Source of the DNA: Streptomyces sp. NBC_01216
GTDB lineage: Bacteria > Actinomycetota > Actinomycetes > Streptomycetales > Streptomycetaceae
Reading direction: 5' to 3'
Length of the DNA: 64,000 nucleotides
Assembly: GCF_035994945.1 (NCBI RefSeq)
Contig: NZ_CP108677.1
Coordinates: forward strand, 2,046,001 to 2,110,000
The first letter of the stretch is position 1. Each line of letters starts with the position of its first letter. The notes under the pieces are model-generated. The model had not been told where the DNA came from. It saw only the letters and a list, made by a program, of their open reading frames with translations, and ran no database searches. Shown here one piece after another: positions 1 to 22,537 of this stretch. The translations under genes and the position numbers were made by a program.

Positions 1-1598
1 ACGACCAGCTGGACGGGCCGCTCGGGGTGGAGCAGCAGCGACCGCAGCCGGTCGGGGTCGCGCAGCATCAGCGTGAGCCGCTTGTACGAGGGGACCCGGC
101 GGGCGAAGCCGATGGTGAGGACGTCCGGGTCGAGCACCGATTCGGTCCAGCCGAGTTCGGCGTCCGCCGCGCCCCGCTGGCGCCACGAGGCCCGGACCCG
201 TTCCCGCACCTCGGTCACCAGCTGCTCGCGCAGGGTGCGGCGCAGCTCCCACAGCTCCCGGTCGTCCGGCTCGCCCGCCTCGGCAGCGGGCCGGTGACGC
301 CCGACTTCGGGAGCGGTCCAGGTGGGGGCGTGGACGCCGTTGGTGATCGAGGTGATCGGCACCTCGTCGGCGTCGAAGCCGGGCCACAGTCCGGCGAACA
401 TCGCCCGGCTGACGGTCCCGTGGAGGGTGGAGACGCCGTTGGCGCGCTGGGCCAGGCGCAGCCCCATGGCGGCCATGTTGAAAAGGCCGGGTTCGCCGCC
501 GAGCGGGGTCTCGTCGCCGAGGGCGAGGACACGGTTCACGTCGACGCCGGGGAGTTCGCCGTCCTCGCCGAGATGGCGGGCGACCTGGGCGCGGTCGAAG
601 CGGTCGATGCCCGCGGGGACGGGGGTGTGGGTGGTGAAGACGGTCCCGGCTCGGACGGTCTCCAGGGCCGCGTCGAAGGCGACGCCCTCGCCGGCGAGTT
701 CGCGGATGCGTTCGAGACCGAGGAAGCCCGCGTGGCCCTCGTTGGTGTGGAAGACCTCGGGGTCCGGTGTGCCGGTGAGCCGGCAGTAGGTGCGGACGGC
801 GCGGACGCCGCCGATGCCGAGGAGCATCTCCTGGAGCAGCCGGTGCTCGCTGCCGCCGCCGTACAGCCGGTCGGTGACCTCGCGTTCGCCGGGCGCGTTC
901 TCCTCCACGTCGGAGTCGAGCATCAGCAGCGGCACCCGGCCGACCTGCGCGGTCCAGACGTGGGCGTGCAGTCTCCGGCCGCCGGGCAGGGCGAGCGTGA
1001 CGCGGGCGGGGGTGCCGTCGGTCTCGCGGAGCAGCTCGACCGGCATCTCTCCGGGGTCGAGGACGGGGTAGTGCTCCTGCTGCCAGCCGTCCCGGGACAG
1101 GGACTGGCGGAAGTAGCCGTGGCGGTAGAGGAGGCCGACGCCGACGAGGGGGACGCCGAGGTCACTGGCGGCCTTGAGGTGGTCTCCGGCGAGGATGCCG
1201 AGGCCGCCGGAGTACTGGGGCAGGGCGGCGGTGACGCCGAACTCGGGCGAGAAGTAGGCGACGGCGGCGGGCAGCTCGCCGTCGTGTTCCGGGTGGAGCT
1301 GGTACCAGCGGGGTGCGTGCAGGTACTGGTGGAGGTCCTCGGCCGCGGCGCGCAGGCGGGCCAGGAAGTCCTGGTCCGCGGCGAGGGCGGCGAGGCGGGT
1401 GGCGGAGACGGCACCGAGCAGCCGGACGGGATCGAGGTCCTCGCCGCGGCGGCCCGGCGGGTTGCCGGGGTCGACGGCGGCGAAGAGTTCCCTGGTGGGC
1501 TCGTGCCAGGACCAGCGCAGGTTGCGCGCCAGATCGCTGAGGGGTCGAAGGGTGTCGGGGAGGACGGGGCGCACGGTGAATCGACGGATTGCCTTCAC
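1..1598 (-). CDS. glgP: Alpha-glucan (glycogen/maltodextrin) phosphorylase, 3' end outside window
   Basis: The first ~530 residues of a GlgP-type phosphorylase, which releases glucose-1-phosphate from alpha-1,4-glucan in the cytoplasm; the gene runs off the left edge, so the PLP-binding catalytic end is not visible. The N-terminus (MKAIRRFTVRP, then LRPLSDLARNLRWSWHEPTRELF) is the DUF3417 domain of actinobacterial glycogen phosphorylases, followed by AYFSPEFGVTAALPQYSGGL and GILAGDHLKAASDLGVPLVG, which are phosphorylase signatures. GTG start chosen because AAGG lies 8 bases upstream; an in-frame GTG at 1609 is less well placed. In S. coelicolor glgP is divergent from and adjacent to glgE; here glgE is 17 kb away. 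Confidence 0.93.
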   Translation of the reverse strand, partial: MKAIRRFTVRPVLPDTLRPLSDLARNLRWSWHEPTRELFAAVDPGNPPGRRGEDLDPVRLLGAVSATRLAALAADQDFLARLRAAAEDLHQYLHAPRWYQLHPEHDGELPAAVAYFSPEFGVTAALPQYSGGLGILAGDHLKAASDLGVPLVGVGLLYRHGYFRQSLSRDGWQQEHYPVLDPGEMPVELLRETDGTPARVTLALPGGRRLHAHVWTAQVGRVPLLMLDSDVEENAPGEREVTDRLYGGGSEHRLLQEMLLGIGGVRAVRTYCRLTGTPDPEVFHTNEGHAGFLGLERIRELAGEGVAFDAALETVRAGTVFTTHTPVPAGIDRFDRAQVARHLGEDGELPGVDVNRVLALGDETPLGGEPGLFNMAAMGLRLAQRANGVSTLHGTVSRAMFAGLWPGFDADEVPITSITNGVHAPTWTAPEVGRHRPAAEAGEPDDRELWELRRTLREQLVTEVRERVRASWRQRGAADAELGWTESVLDPDVLTIGFARRVPSYKRLTLMLRDPDRLRSLLLHPERPVQLV

Positions 1599-1691
1599 GT
1601 GTTCCACCTTCGCGGGAGTACGGAGCGGAGTGGACGCACCACGCTGTGCATCCGGCTGTGCACCCCACCGACGGTAGGTCACGTGCTCCTT

Positions 1692-1728
1692 CCGGACCAC
1701 GGCGCGCGGGGGTCGTGCCGTGGTCCGG
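1692..1728 (-). terminator. Terminator hairpin after the FAD monooxygenase gene
   Basis: Perfect 12-bp stem (CCGGACCACGGC paired with GCCGTGGTCCGG) with a 13-nt loop, beginning 9 bases after the stop of the minus-strand FAD monooxygenase gene. No clear U-run, which is normal for Streptomyces terminators. Confidence 0.6.
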
Positions 1729-1736
1729 AGGGGGCG

Positions 1737-3212
1737 TCAGCGTGGCGCGCCCGCCCGGAGGGCGCCGGTCCGGGTCTCGTAGGGCGATCCCTGGTTGACG
1801 GCGGTGGGGTCGAAGGCGCCGGTGGCGGCGTACCGGGCGGCGATCTCGGCCAGTTCCGGGGCGGGGATCACCTGGTGGATGTCGGTGAAGCCGTGCGGGG
1901 CCCGCTGGTGCGCGAGGTTGATGACGACCTCGGGGCCGAGCTGCCGGTTGGCCCGCTGGAGCGCGGTCATCGCGGGCCGGCGTGTCTCCTCGTAGGCGGC
2001 GAGGCCCTCCGCGGGGTCGCGGTGCAGGGCGAGGGCGTGGGCGAGGGCGCGGGCGTCGACGATGGACTGGGTGGCTCCGTTGGAGCCGATCGGGTACATC
2101 GCGTGGGCGGCGTCGCCGATGAGGGTGGTGCGGCCGTGGCTCCACCGGGCGAGGGGCTCCCGGTCGACCATGGGGTACTCGTGGGCGGAATCGGCGGCGC
2201 GCAGGACGTCGGGGACGCTGACGCCGTCGAACTCCCAGCCGTCGTAGTGGTGCAGGAAGGAGTCCACGGCCACCGGGCGGTTCCAGTCGCCCCGGTAGCG
2301 TTCGTCCGCGCTGTCGGCGGGCCGGGCGAGGGCCCAGTTGACGAGGACCTCCCCGTTCGGGTCTCCGCCGTCGGGGCCGGAGGGGGCGCTCATCGGGTAG
2401 ACGACGGCCTTCTGCCGGTCGTCGCCCGCGATGAACATGAAGGGGGCGACGGCGCGGGCCGGCATCCGGGACACGCCGCGCCAGACCAGCATGCCGTTCC
2501 AGGGCGGGCTGCCCTCGCCGGGGTTGAGGGAGGCCCGGACGGCGGAGCGGATGCCGTCGGCGCCGATCAGCACGTCCGGTTCGAGGGAGGCCCGGCCGCG
2601 GGTGGCGCCGTCGCGGTGCTCCAGCCGGATGCGGGGGCGGCCGTCGGGCAGGGGCTCCACACCGGTGACGCGGACGCCGGTGACCAGGGCGGCCGGGCCG
2701 AGGCGTTCGCGTACGGCCTCGGCGAGGACCCGCTGGAGGTGGGCGCGGTGTACGGAGAGCTGGGGCCAGCGGTATCCGGCGCCGAGTCCGCGCGGCTCGC
2801 GGGAGATGAGGGCGCCGCACCGGTGGTAGTAGCGGAGTTCGCGGGTGCGGAGCGCGCCGGATTCGAGTCGGCTCCGCAGGCCGAGCGCGTCGAGTTCGCG
2901 GACCGCGTTGGGCATGAGGTTGAGTCCGGCGCCGACCGGGAGGCTGGTGCGGACCGATTCGACGACGGTGACCCGGCCGAATCCGGCGGCGTGCAGGGCG
3001 AGCGCGGCGGTGAGGCCCGCGATGCCGCCGCCGGCGACGACGATGTGGAGGTGCCGGGGGCCGGCCAGATCACGCCGGCCGTCCGGCAGGACGTCGGAGA
3101 GGCCGCCGGGGAGGGCGTCGGAGGGGGATTCGGGGAGGGAGTCGGGCAGGGCGTCCGCCGGTCCTTCGGCCGGGAAGGACAGCGGGTGCGGGGAGGGGAC
3201 GCGGGAGATCAT
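1737..3212 (-). CDS. FAD-dependent aromatic-type monooxygenase
   Basis: A 491-residue class A flavoprotein monooxygenase of the salicylate/p-hydroxybenzoate hydroxylase type. Visible motifs: Rossmann FAD site VVAGGGIAGLTAALAL (about residues 57-72), GADGIRSAVRASL (the DG motif, about 220), and TLIGDAAHAMYPIGSNGA (the GD motif, about 345). The first ~55 residues before the FAD site are a low-complexity Pro/Leu/Ser/Asp stretch that family members usually lack. ATG start with GGAG upstream; the start is 10 bases after the stop of the PrnB-like gene, so the two are almost certainly co-transcribed. Substrate unknown; the pairing suggests it acts on the product or precursor of the PrnB-like haem enzyme. 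Confidence 0.85.
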   Translation of the reverse strand: MISRVPSPHPLSFPAEGPADALPDSLPESPSDALPGGLSDVLPDGRRDLAGPRHLHIVVAGGGIAGLTAALALHAAGFGRVTVVESVRTSLPVGAGLNLMPNAVRELDALGLRSRLESGALRTRELRYYHRCGALISREPRGLGAGYRWPQLSVHRAHLQRVLAEAVRERLGPAALVTGVRVTGVEPLPDGRPRIRLEHRDGATRGRASLEPDVLIGADGIRSAVRASLNPGEGSPPWNGMLVWRGVSRMPARAVAPFMFIAGDDRQKAVVYPMSAPSGPDGGDPNGEVLVNWALARPADSADERYRGDWNRPVAVDSFLHHYDGWEFDGVSVPDVLRAADSAHEYPMVDREPLARWSHGRTTLIGDAAHAMYPIGSNGATQSIVDARALAHALALHRDPAEGLAAYEETRRPAMTALQRANRQLGPEVVINLAHQRAPHGFTDIHQVIPAPELAEIAARYAATGAFDPTAVNQGSPYETRTGALRAGAPR

Positions 3213-3222
3213 CGGTTCTCCT

Positions 3223-4380
3223 TCAGGCCGCCGACGAACCGGCGCGGACGGGGGACGCGCCCGTCCGGGGCGCGGGCCGGCCGTTCGTGGCGTGGCGCAC
3301 CAGGGTCTCGTTGTCCCGGGTCAGGTCCAGGATCGAGCGCAGCAGGGCGACCGGAGCGCCGCCGCTGCCTTCCTCGTACAGCCGCAGGTCCTCGCTGTAC
3401 GCCTTGCGGGCGATGCCGATGTGGCGGGCGCGGAAGGTCTTGAGGATCTTCAGGACGCGGCCGAGTGCGCGGGCGGAGGCGGCCAGCCGCGGGGGCAGCC
3501 GCTCCGCGTTCTCCCAGCTGAGGGCCGCGGAGAGCTTGCTGACGGCGGAGACCCCGCCGGCGTACTGGGCGTGGAACTCGCGCCAGGACGGCAGGCTGTA
3601 CGGGAGCGATTCGGCGAGGAAGGCGTCGTAGGCGGCGTCGGAGCGGTCGCACTGCCACAGCGTCAGGTCGACCAGCCAGAGCGGGACCTGGGCGGCCGCG
3701 GGGCCGAGGTAGGAGCGCCCGGCGATGTCGATCTCCTCGAAGTAGGGGCGCAGGGTGAGCGCGAAGTACTCCGGGGAGACGTTGGCGACGGTGAAGTCGA
3801 TGGAGTCGACGATCGACTGCACGTGGTGGGCGGTGCGGTCCAGGGCGGTGGCGAAGCCGGGGTCGTACGGTTCGAGGCAGGCGACCCGGGCGCAGGTGTC
3901 GAGGGCGGCGACCAACCCGGGGAACGCCATCCGGACGGCTTCCTGCAGGTCGGCCTCCATCGGGTGGCCGGTGTACGTTCGGCGGCGCGGGCCGGCCGGG
4001 TTCCACGTGGTGTAGTGGTGCACGGTGTCCCGGGGCACCATGTCACTCCGCCGGCCCAGGAGTTCGAGGACCGGGACGGCCTCGGGGACGGCTTCGGCGG
4101 GCTGGACGCCGTGACGTTTCAGCGAACCGAGCAGGATGCCGAGGTCGCGCATGGCCGCGAGCGCGGCCTCCACGCTCCACTCGGCGGCCCGGTCGAGGTC
4201 GGGCAGCAGGGTGCGCAGGGCCACGACGAGCGCGTCGGTGTCGGCGTCGGCGTTCATCGCGGGCAGCGCGGCCAGCAGGGCGTCGGCGCCGAGCGGGTCG
4301 GCGCCGCGTATGTGGTCGATGCGGTAGCGCGGGTCTCCGTGTTCTTCGAGACCGGGCGCGACGAGGTCGTACAGGGTCAA
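3223..4380 (-). CDS. PrnB-family haem enzyme (monodechloroaminopyrrolnitrin synthase-like, DUF1864)
   Basis: About 385 residues. Long stretches match what I recall of Pseudomonas PrnB (361 residues): AAMRDLGILLGSLKRHG, RDTVHHYTTWNPAG, YTGHPMEADLQEAVRM, VSPEYFALTLRPYFEEI, RSYLGPAAAQVPLW and RVLKILKTFRARH. PrnB is a histidine-ligated haem enzyme of the tryptophan/indoleamine dioxygenase superfamily that rearranges 7-chlorotryptophan to an aminophenylpyrrole in pyrrolnitrin biosynthesis. TTG start at 4380 chosen because GAGGGG lies 7 bases upstream and upstream codons are low-complexity Arg/Pro. No tryptophan halogenase, second halogenase or Rieske oxygenase is nearby, so the product is not pyrrolnitrin; a tryptophan-derived arylpyrrole or other oxidised indole is an inference. 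Confidence 0.86.
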   Translation of the reverse strand: MTLYDLVAPGLEEHGDPRYRIDHIRGADPLGADALLAALPAMNADADTDALVVALRTLLPDLDRAAEWSVEAALAAMRDLGILLGSLKRHGVQPAEAVPEAVPVLELLGRRSDMVPRDTVHHYTTWNPAGPRRRTYTGHPMEADLQEAVRMAFPGLVAALDTCARVACLEPYDPGFATALDRTAHHVQSIVDSIDFTVANVSPEYFALTLRPYFEEIDIAGRSYLGPAAAQVPLWLVDLTLWQCDRSDAAYDAFLAESLPYSLPSWREFHAQYAGGVSAVSKLSAALSWENAERLPPRLAASARALGRVLKILKTFRARHIGIARKAYSEDLRLYEEGSGGAPVALLRSILDLTRDNETLVRHATNGRPAPRTGASPVRAGSSAA

Positions 4381-4518
4381 CGGAATGCCCCTCTGTCTTT
4401 GGTCGGGTGTGGTGCGCCGCCGGGGCGGCGGGCGGATGCGTCGACGGTAGGCCCGTCGACACCCGCGCCCGCGCCCCGGCGGCTCACTCGCCGAGGTCAC
4501 ATGTGGTCACCCACGGGG

Positions 4519-6039
4519 TCACCGCGGGTCGGTCACCCTGTCCCGGGCCGGTGGCGCCGGGGCGGGGACGGGCAGCCGGAGCCGTCCCGAGAGCAGTGCG
4601 GCGGACGCGGCGAAGGCGGCGCCGACGAGCAGGGCGACACGGAAACCGGGGGTCTGGGCCGCGGCTCCGGCTCCTTCGGCGCGGCCGGTGGCGATCGCCA
4701 CCAGGACCGCCAGGCCGAGCACCGAGCCGAACTGCTGGCTGGTGTTGACGAGCCCGGAGGCGAGTCCGGTCTCCTCGGGCGCGGCCTCCGCGGTGGCGGC
4801 CACGTTGGTGGTGACCATGACCAGCGGCAGGGCGACGCCGATGAGGAGGCTCGGTGCGAGGACGGTGCCGGCGAAGGTGCCGTCGGAGTCGAGCGCGAGG
4901 GCCAGCCATGCGGTTCCGGCGCACAGCAGCACGAAGCCGAGCACCATGGTGCGGGTCAGGCCGATCCGGAAGATGAGCCGGCCGGTCAGCGGGGCGACCA
5001 GGACGACGACCACGGACAACGGCAGCAGACCGAGCCCGCCGCCGAGCGGGCCGTAGCCGAGGACGCTCTGCAGATACAGGCTGACCAGGAAGAACATCGG
5101 GAACATCGCCATTTGGCCGAGGGCGCTGAGGGTGTTGGCCAGCCGCAGGGCGGGACGGGCGAGAACCTCCGGCGGGACGAGCGGCACGGCGGTACGGGTC
5201 TCGGTGACGGCGAACACGGCGAGCAGCGCCAGCCCGGCACCGCCCGCCCCGAGGGTCCGTCCGGACAGCCAGCCGGACGTGCCCGCGCCGACGAGCGCGT
5301 ACGCGAGGAGGCCGAGCCCGGCGGTGGCGGTCAGCGCCCCGACGAGGTCGAAACCCCGGCCGGCGGACGCGCCCGGGAGCCGGCCCGCGGCGGCCGGTGC
5401 GCAGGGCGGGCCATCCGGGGCCGGGGTGACGGCGGGCGGGGTGACGGCGGGCGGAACGCGGGGGTCCGGGGTGGCGGCGGGCGGCAGGACACGCGGGGCC
5501 AGGGCGGCGAGGAGGACGGCGGCGAGCACGTTGAGCCAGAAGGTGGAGCGCCAGCCGAGGAGGTCGGTGAGGACCCCGCCGAGGACGGTCCCGAGGACGC
5601 CGCCGAGGCCGCCCATGGCGGCGAAGGCGCCGAGGGCCCGGTGCCGGGCGGGCCCGTCGGGGAAGAGCACGAGCAGCAGAGCGAACGCGGACGCGGCGGC
5701 GAGGGCTGCGCCACAGCCCTGGACGGCGCGTGCGGCGACCAGGGCCTCCGTACGCGGGGCGAGGGCGCCGACGGCGGACGCGGCGGCGAGCAGCCCGAGC
5801 CCGACGAGGTAGAGCCTGCGGTGGCCGAACAGGTCGGCGGCGCGTCCGCCGAGCAGCAGCAGCCCGCCGAAGGTGATCAGGTAGGCGTTGGCCACCCAGG
5901 ACAGTCCGGCCGATCCGGCCCCGAGATCCGCCCCGACGGAGGGCAGCGCCACATTGACGATCGCGGTGTCCAGGATCAGCAGGCACTGCGTGGCGGCGAG
6001 CAGCACCAGCGCGCCTCTCGGAGCGCGGTCGCCGCTCAC
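4519..6039 (-). CDS. MFS drug/metabolite exporter, DHA2 (EmrB/QacA) type
   Basis: 506 residues with about 14 hydrophobic helices. The family signature is clear: LILDTAIVNVALPSVGADL in helix 1, NAYLITFGGLLLLGGRAADL followed by FGHRR (motif A) after helix 2, and SGLVNTSQQFGSVLGLAVLV near the C-terminus. GTG start chosen for GGGAGG six bases upstream. It lies between the HpaB-type and PrnB-like genes on the same strand (112 and 138 bp gaps), so it is probably the exporter or self-protection gene for the cluster product. Substrate is unknown. Confidence 0.9.
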   Translation of the reverse strand: MSGDRAPRGALVLLAATQCLLILDTAIVNVALPSVGADLGAGSAGLSWVANAYLITFGGLLLLGGRAADLFGHRRLYLVGLGLLAAASAVGALAPRTEALVAARAVQGCGAALAAASAFALLLVLFPDGPARHRALGAFAAMGGLGGVLGTVLGGVLTDLLGWRSTFWLNVLAAVLLAALAPRVLPPAATPDPRVPPAVTPPAVTPAPDGPPCAPAAAGRLPGASAGRGFDLVGALTATAGLGLLAYALVGAGTSGWLSGRTLGAGGAGLALLAVFAVTETRTAVPLVPPEVLARPALRLANTLSALGQMAMFPMFFLVSLYLQSVLGYGPLGGGLGLLPLSVVVVLVAPLTGRLIFRIGLTRTMVLGFVLLCAGTAWLALALDSDGTFAGTVLAPSLLIGVALPLVMVTTNVAATAEAAPEETGLASGLVNTSQQFGSVLGLAVLVAIATGRAEGAGAAAQTPGFRVALLVGAAFAASAALLSGRLRLPVPAPAPPARDRVTDPR

Positions 6040-6111
6040 CGCACACCTCCCCGGGTGGGGCGTCGGGCTCCGGTGCCGACGAGGCGGGGCGGGGTCGCGG
6101 CCGGGGCTGCC

Positions 6112-6149
6112 GCCGGGCCGGCGGCGCCCGGCCGCCGACGCGGCCCGGC
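6112..6149 (-). terminator. Hairpin between HpaB-type and MFS genes
   Basis: GCCGGGCCG pairs with CGGCCCGGC around a 20-nt loop, beginning 2 bases after the HpaB-type stop. It could terminate or attenuate transcription into the exporter gene, so the four genes may not form one simple operon. Confidence 0.4.
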
Positions 6150-6151
6150 CG

Positions 6152-7582
6152 TCACCTCGTCGTCCCGAGGTCGTAGCCGTCCAGGCAGCCTTGGGCCAGC
6201 GAGACGCAGTCGTCGGCCCCGCCCGCCCAGGTCTGCATCGTGAGGTAGACGTGCGGGGCGCCCTGGTAGAAGCGCTCGTACTGTTCGTGCCGGCCGGCGA
6301 ACTCCGAACCGAGCGCGTCCCAGGCGAGCTTGAGCAGCTTGACGCGGTCCTCCGCCGGCTGGCCGGGGGCCCGGAAGTACTGCTGGACCAGCGGCCCGAG
6401 TTCGGGGTGGAGGAGGTCACGGCCGGACGCGGGCTGCTGAATGAGCGCCCCGCCCGCCAGCAGTTTGATGTCCTGTACCGCGCGCGGGTACAGCTCGCCG
6501 GCCATGATCCGCTGGGCGAAGGAGATCTCCTGCCCGGGCCGGACGCCGCCGCGTCCCTCGTCGACCGCCTCCCAGGACGCCTCCGCCGCGAGGACGAACG
6601 CCTTGGCCTGCGCGACCATGCCGAGAAGCCGCCCGGTCGCCTGGGTGACGGCCGGCACCTGGTCGGTTCCGTTCGAGCGGGCGATCAGGATCGCCAGTCC
6701 GGTGAGGAACTCCAGCTTGGTCCAGAACCGGGTGGCGGACTGGTGCACGAAGTTCAGGTAGGCCGGGGTCCGCCACCACATCGCGGCGGTCGCGTCGACG
6801 TCCCGGTAGGTCAGGACCCGTTCCCAGGGGACGAACACGTCCTCGCAGACGAGCAGCGCGTCGTTCTCGTCGTACCGCGAGGAGAGCGGGTGGTCGAAGA
6901 CGGAGCGGGCCGCCGCCTCGTAGGAGGTGCGGGAGATCAGCCTGAGGCCGGGGGTGCCGGCGGGAATCGAGAAGCTCACGGCGCGCCCGTTGTCCTCGGG
7001 CGCGAGGGGTTCGATCGTGCCGACGAGGATCTCGTCGGCGAAGACCGCGCCGGTACCGATGGACTTGGCGCCACGCACCACGATGCCGTCGTCGCGTTCC
7101 GCCACCACCCGCACCACCAGGTCGTCCTCGCCGCGCCCCGACGCGGGGTTCGTGATGGTGAAGGCGCAGTACAGGCTGCCCTCGGCGAGCCGCCGGTGGT
7201 AGGCGAGGGCGTTGCCGGCGCCGTCGAAGCCCTCGGTGGTGAAGACCCCGGGCACGGCGGCGAATCCGGCCGCGCCCGAGGCCATGTAGTCGGGGGTGCG
7301 GCCGAGGAAGCCGTAACTGGCCTCCGCCCACACCTTGTACGCCCGCCGGCGCGCCACCAGGTCCTCGTACGAACGCGGCACGGCGTACGCGCGGTGCACG
7401 CCGTCCCGGAGCAGGGCGGAGCTGTGCGGGGAGTCGCGGGCGAGGTCGAACAGCCCGGCGAAGGAGGCCGCGGTGGCCCCGAAGGCGGGGTGCGTGGTGA
7501 CGTCCTTGATCCGCTCCCCGTCGAGCCAGATCTCGCGCCCGTCCCGCAGCGCCTCCAGATACTCCTGCCCGGACCTCGTCAC
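6152..7582 (-). CDS. HpaB-family flavin-dependent phenol hydroxylase (4-hydroxyphenylacetate 3-monooxygenase oxygenase component)
   Basis: 476 residues of the HpaB/HpaH two-component monooxygenase family, which uses externally supplied FADH2 to ortho-hydroxylate phenols. The N-terminus (MTRSGQEYLEALRDGREIWL) and the core motifs IVVRGAKSIGTGAVFADEI, CEDVFVPWERVLTYRDV and AGGALIQQPAS are characteristic. No HpaC-type flavin reductase is encoded nearby, so reduced flavin must come from elsewhere in the genome. GTG start chosen for GGAGAGG nine bases upstream. First gene of the minus-strand cluster; it probably hydroxylates an aromatic intermediate of the PrnB-like pathway, though acting alone on tyrosine or hydroxyphenylacetate is possible. 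Confidence 0.87.
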   Translation of the reverse strand: MTRSGQEYLEALRDGREIWLDGERIKDVTTHPAFGATAASFAGLFDLARDSPHSSALLRDGVHRAYAVPRSYEDLVARRRAYKVWAEASYGFLGRTPDYMASGAAGFAAVPGVFTTEGFDGAGNALAYHRRLAEGSLYCAFTITNPASGRGEDDLVVRVVAERDDGIVVRGAKSIGTGAVFADEILVGTIEPLAPEDNGRAVSFSIPAGTPGLRLISRTSYEAAARSVFDHPLSSRYDENDALLVCEDVFVPWERVLTYRDVDATAAMWWRTPAYLNFVHQSATRFWTKLEFLTGLAILIARSNGTDQVPAVTQATGRLLGMVAQAKAFVLAAEASWEAVDEGRGGVRPGQEISFAQRIMAGELYPRAVQDIKLLAGGALIQQPASGRDLLHPELGPLVQQYFRAPGQPAEDRVKLLKLAWDALGSEFAGRHEQYERFYQGAPHVYLTMQTWAGGADDCVSLAQGCLDGYDLGTTR

Positions 7583-7764
7583 CGCTTATCGCCTCTCCTC
7601 GTATGCCATGGCTGTCGCCGTCCTGAGCCTGTCCGGCCCAGGGCACCCGGGCAATGAACGTCCGTCCAGCGGTCCTTAAGAACCGGCCAGCCGAATGTCA
7701 CGAATAGGCCGATTCGGGGGATTCCCCGAGGCCGAAGGCCGCGAGAGGGGCACGAGCGAGGCGC

Positions 7765-8050
7765 GCCGGAACGGCCAGCATCCGCCGCTCGCTCCAGCGC
7801 ACCCGCACCGGCGGCCTCACCCACCTGCCCACCAAGACCCGGGCGTCCGAGCGACATGTCGCGCTCCCGACCGCATGCCTCCACTCCCTCAAGGAGTACA
7901 CAGGACGGCAGGACAAGGAGCGAGAGACAGCAGGGTCAGCCTGGCAGGACAGCGGGCTCGTCTTCACCACGCCGACGGGCCGGCCTCTCGACCCCGCCAA
8001 CCTCACCCGCCGTTTCCTCGAACGGGCCGGGCTCCGGCGCATCCGCTTGT
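7765..8050 (+). pseudogene. Remnant of a tyrosine-type site-specific integrase
   Basis: One frame reads AGTASIRRSLQRTRTGGLTH, then LPTKTRASERHVALPTACLH, and after ~35 residues SGLVFTTPTGRPLDPANLTR and RFLERAGLRRIR. This is the middle of the catalytic domain of actinomycete integrases, which continues 'F-HDLRH' in intact members. Here similarity stops at ~8050, and the HxLRH box and catalytic tyrosine are absent. There is no start codon and the N-terminal half is gone. It marks the edge of a former integrative element; the IS begins about 100 bp downstream. Confidence 0.7.
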
Positions 8051-8150
8051 TGAGTCGGCCCGGGGCGCGGTGCCGGGATTGCTCCCGGTCCGTTTCCCGG
8101 GACCGCTCGCCGAACCCGCCGTACCGATCTCTCGGTAACGGGCTCTCCAC

Positions 8151-9037
8151 GGAGCGTTTTCCAACCTCACGCTGATGCGTGGTGAAGGACGAGGACGGCC
8201 TTCACCACGTCGGTGATGCGGTTGGTGCTGCAGCGGAGCTTCCGCAGGAGGCGCCAGCCCTTGAGGGTGGCCATGGCCTGCTCGCCGAGGCAGCGGATCT
8301 TGGCATGGGTGGTGTTGTGGCGGCGCTTCCATCGCTTGAGGCGACGGCCGCGAAACGGTACCCGGACGGGTCCGCCGGCGCCTTGATACGCCTTGTCGGC
8401 CCAGCATTCGAGTCCTGCTTCGGTGAGGGCTTCGATGATGCCGTGCTGTCGTGCGGCGGTGAGGTCGTGAGTCGATCCGGGCAGCGCCGGCGAGGCCCAG
8501 AGCAACCGTCCGAACGGGTCGGTGAGGACCTGGACGTTCATGCCACGGCGCTTGTGCTTCCCCGAGTAGTAGGGGGTGTCAGCGGCGATGCGGTCGATCG
8601 GCGGCAGAGTGCCGTCGAGGATGACGAACGCCTTCGTCCGGATCGTCCTCATCGCCTCGGCCAGGGACGGGGCCAGAGCGGCCAGGATGTCGACGGCCTC
8701 GCGTATGTAGCGGAAGGCGGTCGCGATCCCGATGCCGAAACCGGCCGCGAGTTGGGCGTAGGTGTCACCACACCGCAGGTGGGCCAGGGCCAGCAGAGCC
8801 TGTCGCGAGGCGGGAAGCCGCCGCCACCGCGTGCCGATCTCCTGCCGTCTGGCGGTCAGCCGCCCGGCCAGGAACCGCAAGGTGCGGCTGGACAGATCGA
8901 TCGAAGACGGATAGACAAGCGCGCGAAGCTCCTGGCAGACACGGGTGATCTTGGTCGAGAACCCGTCCACCAGGAGCTTCGTCGTCGCGCAGGACTGTCC
9001 ACCTCGCGGTCAACGAAACCAGCTTGGAAAAGGCTCA
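8151..9037 (-). mobile_element. IS5-family insertion sequence
   Basis: A transposase gene flanked by imperfect inverted ends. The left end GGAGCGTTTTCCAACC (8151-8166) resembles the reverse complement of the right end, TGAGCCTTTTCCAAGC (about 9022-9037), with 13 of 16 matching. The exact outer ends and the target duplication could not be fixed by eye, so boundaries are good to tens of bases. The element lies between the integrase remnant and the RHS locus. Confidence 0.55.
8167..8970 (-). CDS. IS5-family DDE transposase (DDE_Tnp_4 type)
   Basis: 267 residues, apparently full length. An N-terminal HTH region (LLALAHLRCGDTYAQLAAGF, then GIGIATAFRYIREAV) precedes a DDE core: LDGTL (Asp119), PGSTHDL (Asp169) and GEQAMATLKGWRLL (Glu230), the last being the IS5 'E..F..LK.WR' box. 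No frameshift or premature stop, so it may still be active. GTG start; an upstream start is possible. Its stop overlaps the left inverted end of the element, as is common in compact ISs. Confidence 0.85.
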   Translation of the reverse strand: MDGFSTKITRVCQELRALVYPSSIDLSSRTLRFLAGRLTARRQEIGTRWRRLPASRQALLALAHLRCGDTYAQLAAGFGIGIATAFRYIREAVDILAALAPSLAEAMRTIRTKAFVILDGTLPPIDRIAADTPYYSGKHKRRGMNVQVLTDPFGRLLWASPALPGSTHDLTAARQHGIIEALTEAGLECWADKAYQGAGGPVRVPFRGRRLKRWKRRHNTTHAKIRCLGEQAMATLKGWRLLRKLRCSTNRITDVVKAVLVLHHASA

Positions 9038-9052
9038 CTGCCGTCAAAGGCA

Positions 9053-9095
9053 GCGGGTCGCCCCACCGAAAGGTTTCGGTGGGGCGACCCGCTGT
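9053..9095 (-). terminator. Strong terminator hairpin downstream of the toxin/immunity genes
   Basis: Perfect 20-bp stem (arms AGCGGGTCGCCCCACCGAAA and its complement) with a 2-nt apex, about 80 bp after the stop of the minus-strand immunity gene and just outside the IS end. Positions may be off by one. Confidence 0.7.
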
Positions 9096-9171
9096 CTATT
9101 TGCGTCCGACTGTTCTCATTTCCGCAAAACTCGGTAGATCCGTGCTGATTCAATTCAGCCAGGCATCGAAA

Positions 9172-9450
9172 TCAATCGACTGATCGCCCCAGGCGTTCCG
9201 CAAGTGAAATCTGACCGGGTGGCCTCAGGATGAATTTGTCTTTCCGCTCGTCAAAGCAGTCCAGATAGCAGCTGACCCGCCCTCCGACCTCATAACGGTC
9301 TCCGTCATCGATATAGAGAGCGTCGATCAGCCCGACCCGAGACAGCCCCAGGTCAACGATGATCCCCCAGCGGAATACCGCCTCGACCTGTCCATCGATC
9401 ATCTCGCCAATGAGACACTGCTCACGTGCACTGAGCTGCTTGTTCATCAT
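9172..9450 (-). CDS. S1-like (OB-fold) small protein, probable immunity protein of the RHS toxin
   Basis: 92 residues. GEMIDGQVEAVFRWGIIVDL continuing GLSRVGLIDALYIDD and YEVGGRVSCYLDCFDE has the spacing of an S1 RNA-binding domain (G.V..V..WG..VDLG....G.I). The ATG overlaps the RHS stop by 4 bp (ATGA), and it is the last gene before a strong terminator: the classic immunity position in polymorphic toxin loci. AT-richer than its surroundings. The immunity role is inferred from position; S1-like domains are not an immunity family I know, so a direct neutraliser or a target-protecting RNA-binding protein are both possible. Confidence 0.7.
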   Translation of the reverse strand: MMNKQLSAREQCLIGEMIDGQVEAVFRWGIIVDLGLSRVGLIDALYIDDGDRYEVGGRVSCYLDCFDERKDKFILRPPGQISLAERLGRSVD

Positions 9451-15400: not shown

Positions 15401-15665
15401 CGTCGTTGCGGACGAGTTCGGTCGACGATCCGCCGAGGGAGAGGACGAGGTTGTCGCTGGCCCAGCAGAGGTCGGACTTCTTCTTGTCGGTGTCGTTGTC
15501 GTTGTTGGGGCTGTTCTTGCGGTCGTCCGAGCAGGAGCGGTAGCGCCGCTCGACGAAGCCGGGGTGGTAGTCCCAGCCGTCACCGATCCAGGACGCCTGG
15601 CCGTTGGCGACCGAGGTCCTGCCGTCGACGGACTGCGAGGAGTAGTTGAACGCGATCTTCGGGGC
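9447..15665 (-). pseudogene. RHS/YD-repeat polymorphic toxin with Hint domain, N-terminally truncated
   Basis: An open frame of ~2,070 codons. It opens abruptly at APKIAFNYSSQSVDGRTS, the start of the RHS barrel region, with no signal peptide or secretion module. YD repeats (YDDLGRV, YDALGRA, YDVRGRL, YDVLGRP) lead to the RHS core ending REYDATTGRFLSADPI ... YANGNPVTYSDPTGL (~10.75 kb). A variable linker follows, then a PT-Hint domain (CNSFVPGTKVLMADGTSKPI to VLVHNSG, ~10.25-9.81 kb) that should self-cleave, then a ~115-residue tip (ITIYKAPGRGMTDRLLKDGF, GRAYFGLEDDGK, VVQVRIPKADFEQHF). The tip shows a spacing compatible with an ADP-ribosyltransferase fold, but I cannot name its family. Without the N-terminus export is unlikely; internal GTG codons (for example 15197) could still give a product. 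Confidence 0.8.
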
Positions 15666-15676
15666 GGGGCCGGCCG

Positions 15677-15778
15677 GAGGGCTTCTATCGCGGCGGGCGC
15701 ACGTCCCACGAGTCCGCCTACTGGCGCGTCATCCTGCCGGCCGACGGTCTCTGGAGCGACCGGGTCGCCTTCGGGTAG
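15677..15778 (+). pseudogene. C-terminal fragment of an unidentified plus-strand gene
   Basis: The last 33 codons of a frame reading EGFYRGGRTSHESAYWRVIL then PADGLWSDRVAFG and TAG, with normal Streptomyces codon bias and followed 15 bp later by a strong terminator. Its upstream part is replaced by the truncated end of the RHS gene running the other way. I do not recognise the family. Confidence 0.5.
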
Positions 15779-15792
15779 CGCAGCGACGAAAG

Positions 15793-15843
15793 GGGCCCCG
15801 GTGCCCCCGGCCCGGTCTCCGGGGGCCGGGGGCACCGGGGCCC
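15793..15843. terminator. Bidirectional terminator
   Basis: 21-bp perfect stem (GGGCCCCGGTGCCCCCGGCCC and its complement) with a 9-nt loop, lying between the plus-strand gene fragment and the 3' end of the minus-strand araC-type gene. Confidence 0.75.
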
Positions 15844-15875
15844 TCTTGTGCTCCGCCCCGCTCCGCCTCCCCCGG

Positions 15876-16982
15876 TCACGCCGCGTGGTCGTAGCCGGAG
15901 CGGTACTCCCCCGGGGTCATCCCGAACCACTTGCGGAAGGCCAGGTGGAAGCCGACCGCGCTCTGGTAGCCGACCCGGGGCGGGACCGCGGACTGCGGGA
16001 TCGAGGTCTCGGTCAGCAGCCGGGCGGCCTCCTGCATCCGGCGTCCGGTCAGGTGGCGGGCGGGAGCCTCGCCGACGAGTTCCCGGAAGGCGGCGGTGAA
16101 GGCCGAGCGCGACATGCCGACCTCGCGGGCGAGGGACTCGATGGTCCAGGGTTCGGCGTAGCGTGTCGCGATCATCACCATGGCGCGGCTGATGCCGGGG
16201 TGCCGCAGGACCGGCAGCGTCGCCGGGTTGTCGGCGAGTTCGCGCAGCAGCGGGCGCAGCGCGAGAACCAGGGCCATCTCGAAGGCGCGCAGGGTGATGA
16301 GCCGGTCTCCGGGGCCCACCGGTCGGTCGGGCGCGGCGAGCAGCCGCAGGGTGTCGCGCAGCAGTGGTTCGCGGTCGACCTGGGCGCCGTCGAGGACGAG
16401 TGCCCAGGGCAGTGAGGTGTAGAGCCCGGTGGCGGCGCTGGCGTCGTAGTGGAGTCCGGCGCAGAGCATGCGGCTGACGGCTCCGTCTCCGGGGATGACG
16501 ATCTCGCCGGAGGTGCCCGGCTGGCGTTCGGGCAGGACGGCCCTGAGGGGTACGCCCTGCCGGTCGGGGCGGTCGGAGAGGCGGTGGGCGATGCCGGTGG
16601 GGAAGACGATCAGGTCGCCGGCGCGCAGTTCGAGCGGGGCCTGGCCGTCGCCGGTGATCCAGCAGCCTCCTTCGACGATGTAGTGGAGGACGGCGCAGCT
16701 CTGTTCCGCGTCGCCCTCGATGGCCCAGGGGGCACGGACGTGCCAGCGGCTGTCGAAGACCCCGGTGAGGCGGAGTGGCTTCAGCAGTTCGCTCAGCAGG
16801 TCGTCCCGCTCCTCGCAGTCGTCCCCGCGCCGGTCGTCGCACGAGCCCCGAGGGCCGTCCTCTCCCCGCCCGTGGGGCCGGTCCTCGCCCCATTCCTCCG
16901 GCCGGTTCTCGCGCCGGTCTTCGCGCCGGTGCTCACGTCGGTCCTCACGTCGGTCGTCACGGTCGGTTCGCACGTTGTCCAT
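15876..16982 (-). CDS. AraC-family transcriptional regulator with N-terminal cupin
   Basis: 368 residues. A cupin sensor (CAVLHYIVEGGCWITGDG, LELRAGDLIVFPTGIAHRLS) occupies about 85-250, and an AraC double HTH the C-terminus (TIESLAREVGMSRSAFTAAF, SAVGFHLAFRKWFGMTPGEY). The first ~60 residues are an unusual highly charged run (DRDDRREDRREHRREDRREN and similar) encoded by degenerate ~12-bp tandem repeats at 16870-16980; most relatives begin near DDLLSELLKPLRLTGVFDSR. Divergent from the NmrA-family gene across 116 bp, which it probably controls, as is typical for this regulator/oxidoreductase pairing. Confidence 0.88.
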   Translation of the reverse strand: MDNVRTDRDDRREDRREHRREDRRENRPEEWGEDRPHGRGEDGPRGSCDDRRGDDCEERDDLLSELLKPLRLTGVFDSRWHVRAPWAIEGDAEQSCAVLHYIVEGGCWITGDGQAPLELRAGDLIVFPTGIAHRLSDRPDRQGVPLRAVLPERQPGTSGEIVIPGDGAVSRMLCAGLHYDASAATGLYTSLPWALVLDGAQVDREPLLRDTLRLLAAPDRPVGPGDRLITLRAFEMALVLALRPLLRELADNPATLPVLRHPGISRAMVMIATRYAEPWTIESLAREVGMSRSAFTAAFRELVGEAPARHLTGRRMQEAARLLTETSIPQSAVPPRVGYQSAVGFHLAFRKWFGMTPGEYRSGYDHAA

Positions 16983-17098: not shown

Positions 17099-18040
17099 AT
17101 GTCCAGTCAGATTCCGATGCGGGTCGCGGTCGTGGGAGCCACCGGTTTCCAGGGCGGCGCGGTGGCACGTCTGCTGACCGAACGGCACCACAAGGTGCGT
17201 ACCCTGACCCGCCGCCCCGCGGGCGACCGTCCGCCGCTGCCCGGTGCCTCCTTCATCGCGGGGGACCTGGCGAGCCTGGCCGACGTGCGCCGGCTCTTCG
17301 ACGGCATGACGCACGCCTCGGTGGTGATGCCGCTGGTGTACGAGGCGGAGCGGGTGCGGCTGTACGCGCGGAACATCGCGCACGCGGCCCGGGAGGCGGG
17401 CATCCTGCGTCTGGTCTACAACGCCAACACGCGGATCCCGCAGGGCCCGACCTCGGTGGCCGCGTTCGAGACCAGGCGGATCGCCGAGGAGGTCCTGCGG
17501 GACAGTGGTGTGCCGCTGGTCGTCGTCCGGCCACCGGTGTACCTGGACAACCTGTTCTCGCCGTGGAACGGCCCCGCGCTGGTCGACGAGGGCGTCCTCG
17601 CCTATCCGCTGCCGGCCTCCACCCCGACGGCCTGGCTCTCGCACCGCGACCTGGCGGAGGCGGTGCTGGCCGCGCTGACCGGGGAGGGGCTGGAGGGCCG
17701 GACCTTCGACATCGGCGGGGCGCAGGCGCTGACCGGTGCGGAGCTGGCCGCCGCGTTCGGCCGGGGGCTGGGCCGTTCGGTGCAGTACCTGCCGCTGCCG
17801 CCGGAGGTCTTCGAGCGGGGGCTCGCGCAGCTGCTGGGCCCGGCCGCGGCGGCCGGGGTCGCGGGGATCTACCACTACATGGCGACGGGCGTCGACCCGC
17901 TGCTGCTCACGGCCGACGACGGGGTGTCGGCGGACGTCCTGGCCGTGCGCCCGACACCGGTGGACGAGTGGGTCATGCGTCAGCCGTGGCAGGTGTGGTC
18001 CGGCAACACCGAGGGGCAGCCTGCCTCGCCTCAGGACTGA
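17099..18040 (+). CDS. NmrA-family NAD(P)-binding protein / atypical short-chain dehydrogenase
   Basis: 313 residues. The Rossmann motif VAVVGATGFQGGAVARLLTE is at the N-terminus, followed by GASFIAGDLASLADVRRLFD; no YxxxK catalytic pair is obvious, as in NmrA/quinone-reductase-like members that sense or reduce. ATG start with GAAGGG 12 bases upstream. Divergent from the AraC-type regulator. A redox-sensing or quinone/aldehyde reductase role is an inference; no substrate can be read from the sequence. Confidence 0.85.
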   Translation: MSSQIPMRVAVVGATGFQGGAVARLLTERHHKVRTLTRRPAGDRPPLPGASFIAGDLASLADVRRLFDGMTHASVVMPLVYEAERVRLYARNIAHAAREAGILRLVYNANTRIPQGPTSVAAFETRRIAEEVLRDSGVPLVVVRPPVYLDNLFSPWNGPALVDEGVLAYPLPASTPTAWLSHRDLAEAVLAALTGEGLEGRTFDIGGAQALTGAELAAAFGRGLGRSVQYLPLPPEVFERGLAQLLGPAAAAGVAGIYHYMATGVDPLLLTADDGVSADVLAVRPTPVDEWVMRQPWQVWSGNTEGQPASPQD

Positions 18041-18500: not shown

Positions 18501-20588
18501 ATGCCCGCAACCCGCCAGCCGTCGACGGAGCTACAAAGAGCGCACCACCACCCGCACCCCCGTACCCCTTCAGGTGATGCTGTGAATCCGCTCATGGGAC
18601 GTATTCCCGTACTGGACGTCCGCCCCCTGGTCGACTGTGGACGCCGGCCCGCGAAGGCCGTGGCCGGTGAGACCTTCGAGGTGTCGGCCACCGTCTTCCG
18701 CGAGGGCCATGACGCCGTCGCCGCCAACGTCGTGCTGCGTGGCCCCTCGGGCCGCCCCGGCCCCTGGACCCCGATGCGCGAGCTGGCGCCCGGCACCGAC
18801 CGGTGGGGCGCCGAGGTCACGCCGGACGCCGAGGGTCTGTGGACGTACACCGTCGAGGCGTGGAGCGATCCGGTCGCGACCTGGCGCCATCACGCGAGGA
18901 TCAAGATTCCGGCCGGGATCGACTCCGAGCTGGTCCTCGCCGACGGCGCGGCGCTCCACGAGCGCGCGGCGAAGGGCGTGCCCAAGAAAGGCGGTGGCCG
19001 GGAGGCCGTACTCGCGGCGGCCGACGCGCTGCGCGACGAGTCCCGCTCCGCCGCGGCCCGGCTGGCCGCCGCGCTCGCCCCCCGGGTGACCGAGACCCTG
19101 GACCGTCACCCGCTGCGCGAACTCGTGAGCGCCTCGCCCGCGTTGCCGCTCCGGGTGGAGCGCGAGCGGGCGCTGTTCGGCTCCTGGTACGAGTTCTTCC
19201 CCCGTTCCGAGGGGGTGCGGAAGGTCCGCGGTCGGACCGTGCCCGGGACGTTCCGCACCGCCGCCGAGCGGCTGCCGGCGATCGCGGCGATGGGCTTCGA
19301 CGTCGTCTATCTGCCACCCATCCACCCCATCGGCACCACTCATCGCAAGGGTCCCAACAACGCGCTCGCGGCGAGCCCGGAGGACGTCGGCGTGCCGTGG
19401 GCGATCGGTTCACCGGAGGGCGGGCACGATGCCGTCCACCCCGACCTCGGCACGCTCGAGGACTTCGACGCCTTCGTGGCCCGCGCCCGCGAGCTGCGTC
19501 TGGAGATCGCGCTGGACTTCGCCCTCCAGTGCTCCCCGGACCACCCGTGGGTGGAGAAGCACCCGGAGTGGTTCCGTCACCGCGCCGACGGCTCGATCGC
19601 GTACGCCGAGAACCCGCCGAAGAAGTACCAGGACATCTACCCGATCGACTTCGACGGGGCCCCGGGCACGATGGACGCCATCGTCGCCGAGACCGTCCGG
19701 GTGCTGCGGCACTGGATGGACCACGGGGTGCGGATCTTCCGCGTGGACAACCCGCACACCAAGCCGGTGGTGTTCTGGGAGCGGGTGATCGGCGAGATCA
19801 ACCGGGCCGACCCGGACGTGATCTTCCTGGCGGAGGCGTTCACCCGGCCCGCGATGATGCGCACGCTCGGCGCGATCGGATTCCAGCAGTCGTACACGTA
19901 CTTCACCTGGCGCAACACCAGGCAGGAGCTGACCGAGTACCTCACCGAGCTGTCCGGTGACGCGGCGGCCCACATGCGGCCGAACCTCTTCGTGAACACC
20001 CCCGACATCCTGCACGCCTACCTCCAAGGCGGCGGCCGGCCGGCGTTCGAGGTGCGCGCGGTGCTCGCCGCGACCCTCTCGCCGACCTGGGGTGTCTACG
20101 CCGGATACGAACTCTGCGAGAACACCCCCCTGCGGGACGGCAGCGAGGAGTACCTGGACTCAGAGAAGTACCAACTCCGGCCCCGTGACTGGGAGTCGGC
20201 CGAGCGCACCGGGGCCTCGATCGCCCCGCTGATCACCACGCTGAACCGTGTCAGGCGCCGTCATCCGGCGCTGCGCCGGCTGCGCGGGCTGCGCTTCCAC
20301 GCCACCGACAACGACGCGTTGATCGCGTACAGCAAGCGGTCGGGCTCGAACACCGTTCTGGTGGTCGCAAATCTCGACCCTCACCACACCCAGGAGGCCA
20401 CGGTCTCGTTGGACATGCCGGAGCTCGGCCTGGACTGGCACGAGACCGTACCGGTGCGCGACGAGCTCACCGGCGAGACCTATCACTGGGGCAGGGCCAG
20501 CTATGTGCGCCTCGAGCCGGGTGTCACGCCCGCGCACGTCCTCGTCCTGCGACCGTCCCCGCAGACCGGAGGGTCACCCACCACATGA
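18501..20588 (+). CDS. glgE: Alpha-1,4-glucan:maltose-1-phosphate maltosyltransferase
   Basis: 695 residues of GH13_3 GlgE, which transfers maltose from maltose-1-phosphate to the non-reducing end of alpha-1,4-glucan. The sequence follows S. coelicolor GlgE almost throughout: MPAT start, [30 protein letters not shown], and the catalytic segments [11 protein letters not shown] (Asp nucleophile) and [13 protein letters not shown] (Glu acid). ATG start with AGGAG six bases upstream. Its stop overlaps the treS start (ATGA), so they are translationally coupled. In Streptomyces this enzyme works with TreS, Pep2 and GlgB, all downstream here; loss of GlgE causes toxic maltose-1-phosphate build-up. 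Confidence 0.97.
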
Positions 20589-22312: not shown

Positions 22313-22537
22313 CCGACCCGGCCAACTGACCGGGGTGGGGCGGGTTTCCCCCGCGCCACCCTGGGCACTGTGTCCCACACACGGTCTATTCAGGTCCATA
22401 CGGGCCTTCTTGTCGGGCCCATACGGATCTTCCCCACCCGACACGTCCCGCACAGCCGGACAGTTCACGCCGCAATCCGGGACACTCTGCGCATTTGAAC
22501 TCCCACGTGCGCCCCCCGGGGGAAAGGACGCGATGCC

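What the first reader, a model, noticed from the sequence alone, without database searches (positions are those of the whole stretch)
1737..7582. Halogenase-free PrnB-type cluster: PrnB-like haem enzyme, two flavin monooxygenases and an exporter
The PrnB-like gene is followed 10 bp later by an FAD monooxygenase and preceded by an MFS exporter and an HpaB-type hydroxylase, all on one strand. PrnB is known only from the pyrrolnitrin pathway, where it acts on chlorotryptophan; no halogenase or Rieske oxygenase is here. The inferred pathway is oxidative rearrangement of tryptophan or another amino acid, with aromatic hydroxylation and export, giving a non-halogenated product I cannot match to a known compound.
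Basis: partly seen in the sequence, partly recalled or inferred. Interest (0 to 1): 0.82.

Follow-up and report, generated by a model that had tools for sequence, protein, structure and literature searches.

The report
Halogen-free PrnB gene cassette in Streptomyces
A small, unstudied set of genes, carried by a minority of Streptomyces bacteria, pairs a haem enzyme that probably rearranges tryptophan with two oxygen-adding enzymes and an exporter, and probably makes an unknown tryptophan-derived compound.

Summary
The four genes are real, open and on one strand. The PrnB-like protein is a PrnB-family haem enzyme (best solved match PrnB; PrnB fold; haem His in 47 of 47 aligned rows) but lies outside the pyrrolnitrin clade. 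Relatives carry the six-gene cassette between glgE and glgP (36 of 46 loci); four cluster-less Streptomyces lack its genes there. PrnB plus the PhzS-like monooxygenase is the near-constant core (54 of 55 loci). A larger version adds a KSQ-like ketosynthase, a DsbA-like protein and often a BBE oxidase. The 'HpaB' lacks the phenol-deprotonating His (Phe in 42 of 42 scorable glgE/glgP-type copies; 12 of 13 other HpaBs keep His), so catechol formation is unlikely. Inferred pathway: rearrangement of unhalogenated tryptophan, two flavin-dependent oxygenations, export. Product unknown. The claim that PrnB is known only from pyrrolnitrin is wrong.

The parts
1737..3212 (-). PhzS-like FAD monooxygenase (FMO), 491 aa
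   Evidence: FAD_binding_3 and PRK07538; best solved matches 2rgj/3c96, 277 bits (that these are PhzS is recalled); next to PrnB in 54 of 55 loci
3223..4380 (-). PrnB-like haem enzyme, 385 aa from TTG (longest ORF 3223-4500)
   Evidence: PF08933; PDB PrnB E 3.3e-63; fold; haem His320
4519..6039 (-). MFS exporter (EmrB/DHA2-like), 506 aa from GTG
   Evidence: MFS_1 150.1 bits; TIGR00711 190.2 bits, under its cut-off of 230.2
6152..7582 (-). HpaB-like flavin oxygenase without the catalytic His (Phe141)
   Evidence: HpaB_N/HpaB; residue test
7671..7684 (-). Conserved GGTTCTTAAGGACC element about 90 bp upstream of hpaB, likely operator/promoter
   Evidence: Within one mismatch in 39 of 46 glgE/glgP-type loci, 0 of 9 others; one copy in the genome
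7706..15874 (.). Insertion of about 8.2 kb that splits the cassette (borders approximate)
   Evidence: blastn to four relatives, where the flanking stretches lie 26-46 bp apart
15876..16982 (-). AraC/cupin-type regulator of the cassette
   Evidence: Cupin_6, HTH_18; 98% identical to the L015 copy, which is next to hpaB
17099..18040 (+). NmrA-like NAD(P)-binding protein, divergent from AraC
   Evidence: NmrA E 1.1e-27; 91% identical to the L015 copy
3..1700 (-). glgP-type phosphorylase (runs off the window), flank of the cassette
   Evidence: DUF3417 and Phosphorylase; flank in relatives
18501..20588 (+). glgE, the other flank of the cassette
   Evidence: GlgE_dom_N_S E 3.8e-64; 95% to L015

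Best explanation
This is an AraC-regulated specialised-metabolite cassette (NmrA divergent from AraC, HpaB-like, MFS, PrnB-like, PhzS-like FMO) that a minority of Streptomyces carry between glgE and glgP. The PrnB-like haem enzyme most likely binds L-tryptophan or a simple unhalogenated derivative and rearranges it to a 3-(2-aminophenyl)pyrrole-type product. The PhzS-like monooxygenase, its near-constant partner, hydroxylates that product. The HpaB-like flavin oxygenase, which lacks the phenol-deprotonating His, adds oxygen at a non-phenolic position. The MFS protein exports the product. Shown: gene content, conservation, fold, active-site residues, no Rieske and no true halogenase in the window. 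Inferred: substrate, each reaction, order of steps, export, and AraC binding to the GGTTCTTAAGGACC element.
For: PrnB is the best solved match by sequence and the top 12 by fold. Haem His, Tyr328 and GSGG are kept in 47 of 47 glgE/glgP-type rows, 8 of 8 expanded-type rows and L066; the Ser of that loop aligns with FbPrnB Ser319, which binds the Trp carboxylate (PMC11791213 section 7). PrnB accepts Trp (PMC11791213) and can turn it into aminophenylpyrrole (PMC11434214 passage). All six genes in 36 of 46 loci, PrnB with FMO in 54 of 55; dN/dS 0.10-0.42. Gained or lost as a unit: glgE and glgP are neighbours without cluster genes in 4 of 4 cluster-less genomes fetched. His to Phe in HpaB is a mark of the cluster.
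Against: No product, substrate or activity is known; PrnB itself is inactive when purified (PMC11791213). Pocket positions differ from pyrrolnitrin PrnB (Tyr123, Ala228, Ala230) and the lineage is a separate clade, so the reaction may differ. The cassette decays in some genomes: only PrnB is left in L081, and stops lie inside the PrnB match of G301, G698 and G371. In this genome the insertion parts AraC from the operon.
Confidence: 0.5

Rival explanations
1. The PrnB-like enzyme is a haem-dependent tryptophan (or other indole) hydroxylase rather than a ring-rearranging enzyme, and the cassette makes a multiply hydroxylated indole product.
For: Other haem-dependent aromatic oxygenases hydroxylate Trp or Tyr: Luz15 and, by prediction, PdnC (PMC13036774 passage). 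The lineage is separate from pyrrolnitrin PrnB and its pocket is altered.
Against: The window lineage keeps Tyr328 and the GSGG loop of PrnB, which the KynA-like clade lacks; best sequence and fold matches are PrnB. The HpaB-like enzyme has lost the residue for handling a phenol such as 5-hydroxytryptophan.
Confidence: 0.25
2. The cassette degrades or detoxifies an aromatic or indole compound and exports it, rather than making a specialised metabolite.
For: Two flavin monooxygenases, an efflux-type MFS and an AraC/cupin regulator would fit; the bare PrnB-FMO pair stands without the rest in L121-L123.
Against: The conserved neighbour families seen are the cassette and glg-locus genes, and the expanded version carries a KSQ-like ketosynthase and often a BBE oxidase, which is biosynthetic in character.
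Confidence: 0.12
3. In this strain the cassette is a decaying remnant without function, cut by the insertion.
For: Erosion in relatives (L081; L020, L026, L029, L034, L037, L038, L043; stops); AraC is parted from the operon here.
Against: All six genes are open in the window, dN/dS is well under 1, and the conserved element before hpaB is kept without a mismatch.
Confidence: 0.08

Closest known systems
Pyrrolnitrin pathway prnABCD (PrnB)
   Same: PrnB-family haem enzyme with the haem His, Tyr and GSGG loop and the PrnB fold
   Different: No PrnA/PrnC halogenase or PrnD Rieske enzyme in the window; separate clade; Tyr instead of Val117, Ala228 and Ala230; PhzS-like FMO, HpaB-like enzyme, AraC and NmrA instead
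Aminophenylpyrrole-derived alkaloids (marinoquinolines)
   Same: A halogen-free phenylpyrrole route; 3-(2'-aminophenyl)-pyrrole and marinoquinoline A come from Rapidithrix thailandica (PMC2630848, passages)
   Different: Their gene cluster was not seen here (the 2019 paper is known to me only as a reference in PMC11434214), so gene content could not be compared
PdnC of the paenidepsin cluster
   Same: PrnB homologue outside pyrrolnitrin, in a cluster with an AraC-type regulator (PMC13036774, passage)
   Different: Belongs to an NRPS lipopeptide cluster; predicted there to hydroxylate Trp residues; sequence not compared
FAD-dependent HpaB (4-hydroxyphenylacetate 3-hydroxylase) and 4oo2 (SgcC, name recalled)
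   Same: Same two domains and 256-258 bits to solved HpaBs
   Different: Catalytic His142 is Phe; under both NCBIfam HpaB cut-offs
PhzS of pyocyanin biosynthesis (identity of 2rgj/3c96 recalled)
   Same: Nearest solved relative of the FMO by far, 277 against 98 bits
   Different: Partnered with PrnB here; phenazine genes were not searched for

Membership tests
PrnB family (PF08933) | Score over Pfam cut-off | tested here: met
   133.6 bits, cut-off 27
PrnB family (PF08933) | Haem-ligand His and substrate-carboxylate Ser | tested here: met
   His320 and Ser339 in 47 of 47 glgE/glgP-type rows
PrnB family (PF08933) | PrnB fold | tested here: met
   pLDDT 89.6; 12 best Foldseek hits are PrnB
PrnB family (PF08933) | Rearranges Trp or 7-Cl-Trp to a phenylpyrrole | not testable with these tools
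   Needs expression and assay
Pyrrolnitrin PrnB / prn cluster | Groups with named pyrrolnitrin PrnBs | tested here: not met
   Six PrnB rows form one set (100/99), window lineage another (95/87)
Pyrrolnitrin PrnB / prn cluster | Halogenases and Rieske oxygenase in the cluster | tested here: not met
HpaB, FAD-dependent 4HPA 3-hydroxylase | HpaB_N and HpaB domains | tested here: met
HpaB, FAD-dependent 4HPA 3-hydroxylase | Arg100-Tyr104-His142 catalytic triad | tested here: not met
   Arg and Tyr present, His is Phe141; role of His142 from PMC10537072 passages
HpaB, FAD-dependent 4HPA 3-hydroxylase | NCBIfam equivalog cut-offs | tested here: not met
   277.9 against 885.2 and 268.5 against 480.2 bits
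PhzS | Nearest solved relative and NCBIfam subfamily PRK07538 | tested here: met
   PRK07538 is a broad subfamily named 'hypothetical protein'
PhzS | Phenazine genes alongside | not tested
   No search made
Flavin-dependent tryptophan halogenase | WxWxIP motif (recalled) and full-length match | tested here: not met
   Absent from the window FMO and found in 0 of 53 orthologues; Pfam hit covers residues 57-113 only
Haem-dependent Trp hydroxylase (Luz15 type) | Groups with Luz15 | not tested

The most novel reading that the evidence does not exclude
A second, halogen-free PrnB lineage has its own pathway: a two-gene core (PrnB plus PhzS-like monooxygenase) that recurs alone, in a six-gene glgE/glgP cassette and in a ten-gene version with a KSQ-like ketosynthase. 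It makes a new family of oxygenated aminophenylpyrrole-type (or otherwise rearranged tryptophan) alkaloids and uses an HpaB-like oxygenase that has given up phenol activation and attacks a new kind of substrate.
Probability: 0.4. Interest if true: 0.72.

Novelty: new variant of a known kind. Interest (0 to 1): 0.55.

Why it matters
PrnB is among the least understood haem enzymes: purified PrnB is inactive and its mechanism is open (PMC11791213). A separate PrnB lineage that almost always comes with one particular flavin enzyme is a new system in which reaction, partner and product can be tested in easily grown Streptomyces. It points to an undescribed tryptophan-derived metabolite in about 8% of sampled Streptomyces genomes (32 of 392 with a PrnB match of 68% identity or more, my count) and to an HpaB-like enzyme with a changed catalytic core.

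Tried and rejected
Halogenase reading of the FAD monooxygenase: a weak Trp_halogenase Pfam hit (22.8 bits, cut-off 21) covers only residues 57-113, and WxWxIP (motif recalled) occurs in 0 of 53 orthologues and not in the window copy. Rejected.

KSQ and BBE of the expanded version supplied from elsewhere in this genome: the four best KS matches are 42-44% identical, in open frames of 822-2430 aa; the best BBE match is 48% on contig C4. No orthologue was found. DsbA was not searched for.

Wider regulon: the 14-mer has a single copy in the genome, and the reversed-pattern control also gave one hit. The single copy is weak evidence; the case rests on the conserved position.

Members outside Streptomyces: a draw of 396 actinobacterial genomes with the expanded-type PrnB matched only the window's own genome, so this lineage is rare elsewhere, or missed, since four candidates per genome were scored. 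A family search of 394 genomes of the class matched 9, six of them Streptomyces.

L080 (44% identical PrnB relative in another actinomycete) has no GSGG at the aligned place and no FMO match in the fetched stretch. L124 has PrnB without FMO and L125/L126 are 30-34% relatives without any other cassette gene; they do not fit the two-gene core.

Literature: searches listed no paper which, by title and abstract start, treats such a cluster in Streptomyces or a PrnB-PhzS pair. The library holds open-access papers only, so this does not show that it is unpublished. Two searches on the ketosynthase led nowhere.
Full report
OBSERVATION. The starts of PrnB (TTG) and MFS (GTG) were set from relatives and, for PrnB, a ribosome-binding site. 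The 10 bp gap is right. Whole-genome searches put no Rieske domain in the window and no Trp_halogenase hit there other than a weak one to the FAD fold of the monooxygenase.

THE CLUSTER IS LARGER AND SPLIT BY AN INSERTION. A scan of species-representative genomes gave 55 loci with a relative of the PrnB-like protein. In most of them an AraC regulator and a divergent NmrA-like gene sit before hpaB. In the window these lie at 15876-16982 (-) and 17099-18040 (+), followed by glgE at 18501-20588. Against four relatives homology stops at 15872-15875 and resumes at 7690-7705; in the relatives these points are 26-46 bp apart. The inserted 8.2 kb holds a DDE transposase (8167-8970) and an RHS protein with a pretoxin HINT domain (9447-15197), and its G+C content is lower than its surroundings in part. 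The conserved element before hpaB lies on the hpaB side of the insertion, so it is kept.

CONSERVATION. I assigned 46 of the 55 loci to the glgE/glgP type (L046, a 3.4 kb contig, by identity only). All six genes are found in 36 of 46. The ten misses are L026, L029, L037 and L043 (no MFS), L020 (no MFS, HpaB truncated), L034 (no FMO), L038 (no HpaB or MFS), and L044, L046 and L056 (contig ends). PrnB and FMO occur together in 45 of 46 and in 9 of 9 other loci. dN/dS from the window to seven relatives is 0.22-0.42 for PrnB, 0.26-0.34 FMO, 0.14-0.31 HpaB, 0.30-0.36 MFS, 0.19-0.35 NmrA and 0.10-0.27 AraC, with glgE (0.09-0.17) and glgP (0.18-0.39) as yardsticks. In the closest relative, L015, the FMO match is split between two frames. 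One genome keeps PrnB alone between glgP and glgE, with a short NmrA remnant (L081). In one search, 51 of 392 Streptomyces genomes matched the window PrnB; by my count from its list 32 at 68% identity or more, 4 at 53-54%, 4 at 44-46% and 11 more weakly or in fragments. Among the 32, stop codons lie inside the match of G301, G698 and G371, and that of G015 is in two pieces.

SITE. Four Streptomyces genomes without a PrnB match were fetched, of the eight in which glgE was sought. In all four glgE and glgP are divergent neighbours, about 0.3, 0.5, 1.7 and 1.7 kb apart, with no match to a cluster gene between them; one weak MFS-like match (35%) lies outside the gap in L132. What fills the two longer gaps was not examined. 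The cassette thus looks gained or lost as a unit at this place.

OTHER VERSIONS. Seven of the 55 loci (L060-L065, L068: Streptomyces, Kitasatospora aureofaciens, Virgisporangium) carry an expanded cluster: AraC, a second FMO, HpaB, MFS, NmrA, a ketosynthase-like protein, PrnB, FMO, DsbA-like and, in five of the seven at the threshold used, a BBE oxidase. L128 has the same set without a BBE match, L082 a partial copy. L127 has all of it but its contig has the same length as that of L065, so it is probably the same genome. In three ketosynthase-like proteins printed, the active Cys is Gln (DTAQASS, DCAQASS, DGAQASS), as in KSQ decarboxylases (recalled); the L060 copy matches 7zma best (520 bits, next 365). 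Kitasatospora L059 has AraC, NmrA, KSQ, PrnB, FMO, DsbA and BBE but no HpaB or MFS match. L121-L123 have only the PrnB-FMO pair among the genes tested; L124 has PrnB alone. A gammaproteobacterial MAG (L066) has the pair with a divergent DsbA-like gene (25% identity, E 7e-10). PrnB with FMO is the common denominator.

THE PRNB-LIKE ENZYME. Best solved relatives are P. fluorescens PrnB (2v7i, E 3.3e-63) and the Flavobacteriales PrnB (9dfg, E 3.1e-51). The AlphaFold2 model (pLDDT 89.6, pTM 0.86) has PrnB chains as its 12 best matches, TM 0.80-0.94, ahead of SO4414 and IDO. The haem His, Tyr328 and the GSGG loop are kept in 47 of 47 glgE/glgP-type rows (window included), 8 of 8 expanded-type rows and L066, and in L121-L123, L127 and L128, but not in full in L080. 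The Ser of the loop aligns with FbPrnB Ser319, which binds the Trp carboxylate (PMC11791213, section 7). Position 123 is Tyr, as Tyr104 of FbPrnB, where six of six pyrrolnitrin-type rows have Val; that paper says the Tyr narrows the pocket. Ala228, Ala230 and Trp235 are further marks of the lineage. In a 44-row tree six rows that include named PrnBs form one set (100/99) and the window lineage another of 19 rows (95/87); many forks are open and FbPrnB is a long branch. Another, larger part of the same Pfam family is partly named KynA by its sources. So it is a PrnB-family member, but not an orthologue of pyrrolnitrin PrnB.

THE FLAVIN ENZYMES. The FMO's nearest solved relatives are 2rgj/3c96 (277 bits; next 98), PhzS by recall, and it passes PRK07538. 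The HpaB-like protein aligns with FAD-type HpaBs but lacks His142 of the Arg100-Tyr104-His142 triad, which deprotonates the phenol (PMC10537072, passages). Phe stands there in 42 of 43 glgE/glgP-type copies (the other a gap), 7 of 7 expanded copies and in L082, L127 and L128. Tyr104 is Cys in 11 of the 43. Control: of 17 HpaB_N matches over the cut-off in 31 genomes, the 4 cluster members have Phe (they overlap with the set), and of the 13 others 12 have His and 1 Val. Catechol formation by this enzyme is therefore unlikely; what it does instead is open.

REGULATION. Before hpaB a block with the core GGTTCTTAAGGACC is kept within one mismatch in 39 of 46 glgE/glgP-type loci and in none of the 9 others: 33 at 94-106 bp before the start, 5 at 142-229 bp, and one (L038) before prnB after loss of hpaB and MFS. 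It is missing from L039, L042, L044, L045, L046, L049 and L056, of which L044 and L046 are cut by contig ends. It occurs once in the window's genome; a reversed-pattern control also gave one hit. I take it as the operator or promoter, perhaps bound by the AraC protein; binding is inferred.

MECHANISM AND LIMITS. Best reading: unhalogenated Trp is rearranged by the PrnB-like enzyme to an aminophenylpyrrole-type product, which the FMO hydroxylates and the HpaB-like enzyme oxygenates before export. PrnB accepts Trp (PMC11791213; PMC11434214) and 3-(2'-aminophenyl)-pyrrole is a natural product of a gliding bacterium (PMC2630848). PrnB is inactive in vitro and may need a partner; that the FMO is this partner is possible but not favoured, since prnA-prnD alone suffice in E. 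coli. A hydroxylase role cannot be excluded (PMC13036774). Papers seen: PMC11791213 (abstract, parts 1 and 2, section 7, discussion, passages); PMC10537072, PMC13036774, PMC11434214, PMC12921851 and PMC2630848 (passages only).

Noticed in passing
window 7706-15874: Insertion of about 8.2 kb with a DDE transposase (8167-8970) and a 1916-aa RHS protein with a pretoxin HINT domain (9447-15197), between the AraC gene and hpaB.
   Followed up: partly
L060-L065, L068, L128: Expanded ten-gene version with a KSQ-like stand-alone ketosynthase but no acyltransferase or carrier protein among the ten proteins scanned in L060.
   Followed up: partly
L066:8900-12401: Gammaproteobacterial MAG with a DsbA-like gene, PrnB and FMO side by side, at 49-50% identity for PrnB.
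   Followed up: partly
L070 / L079 (G513) and hits: A separate, large part of PF08933 (3100 hits), some named KynA tryptophan dioxygenase, with Leu and Ala where PrnB has Tyr328 and Ser339 in six rows.
   Followed up: partly
L125, L126 (G023, G526): Streptomyces PrnB relatives of 30-34% identity with Met in place of Tyr328 and no other cassette gene nearby: a further subfamily.
   Followed up: no
window 15793-15843: Perfect 21-bp inverted repeat just after the AraC gene, possibly its terminator.
   Followed up: no
window 18501-23887: glgE, an alpha-amylase-family gene (trehalose-synthase-like) and a maltokinase-cap gene form the GlgE-pathway locus that borders the cassette.
   Followed up: no
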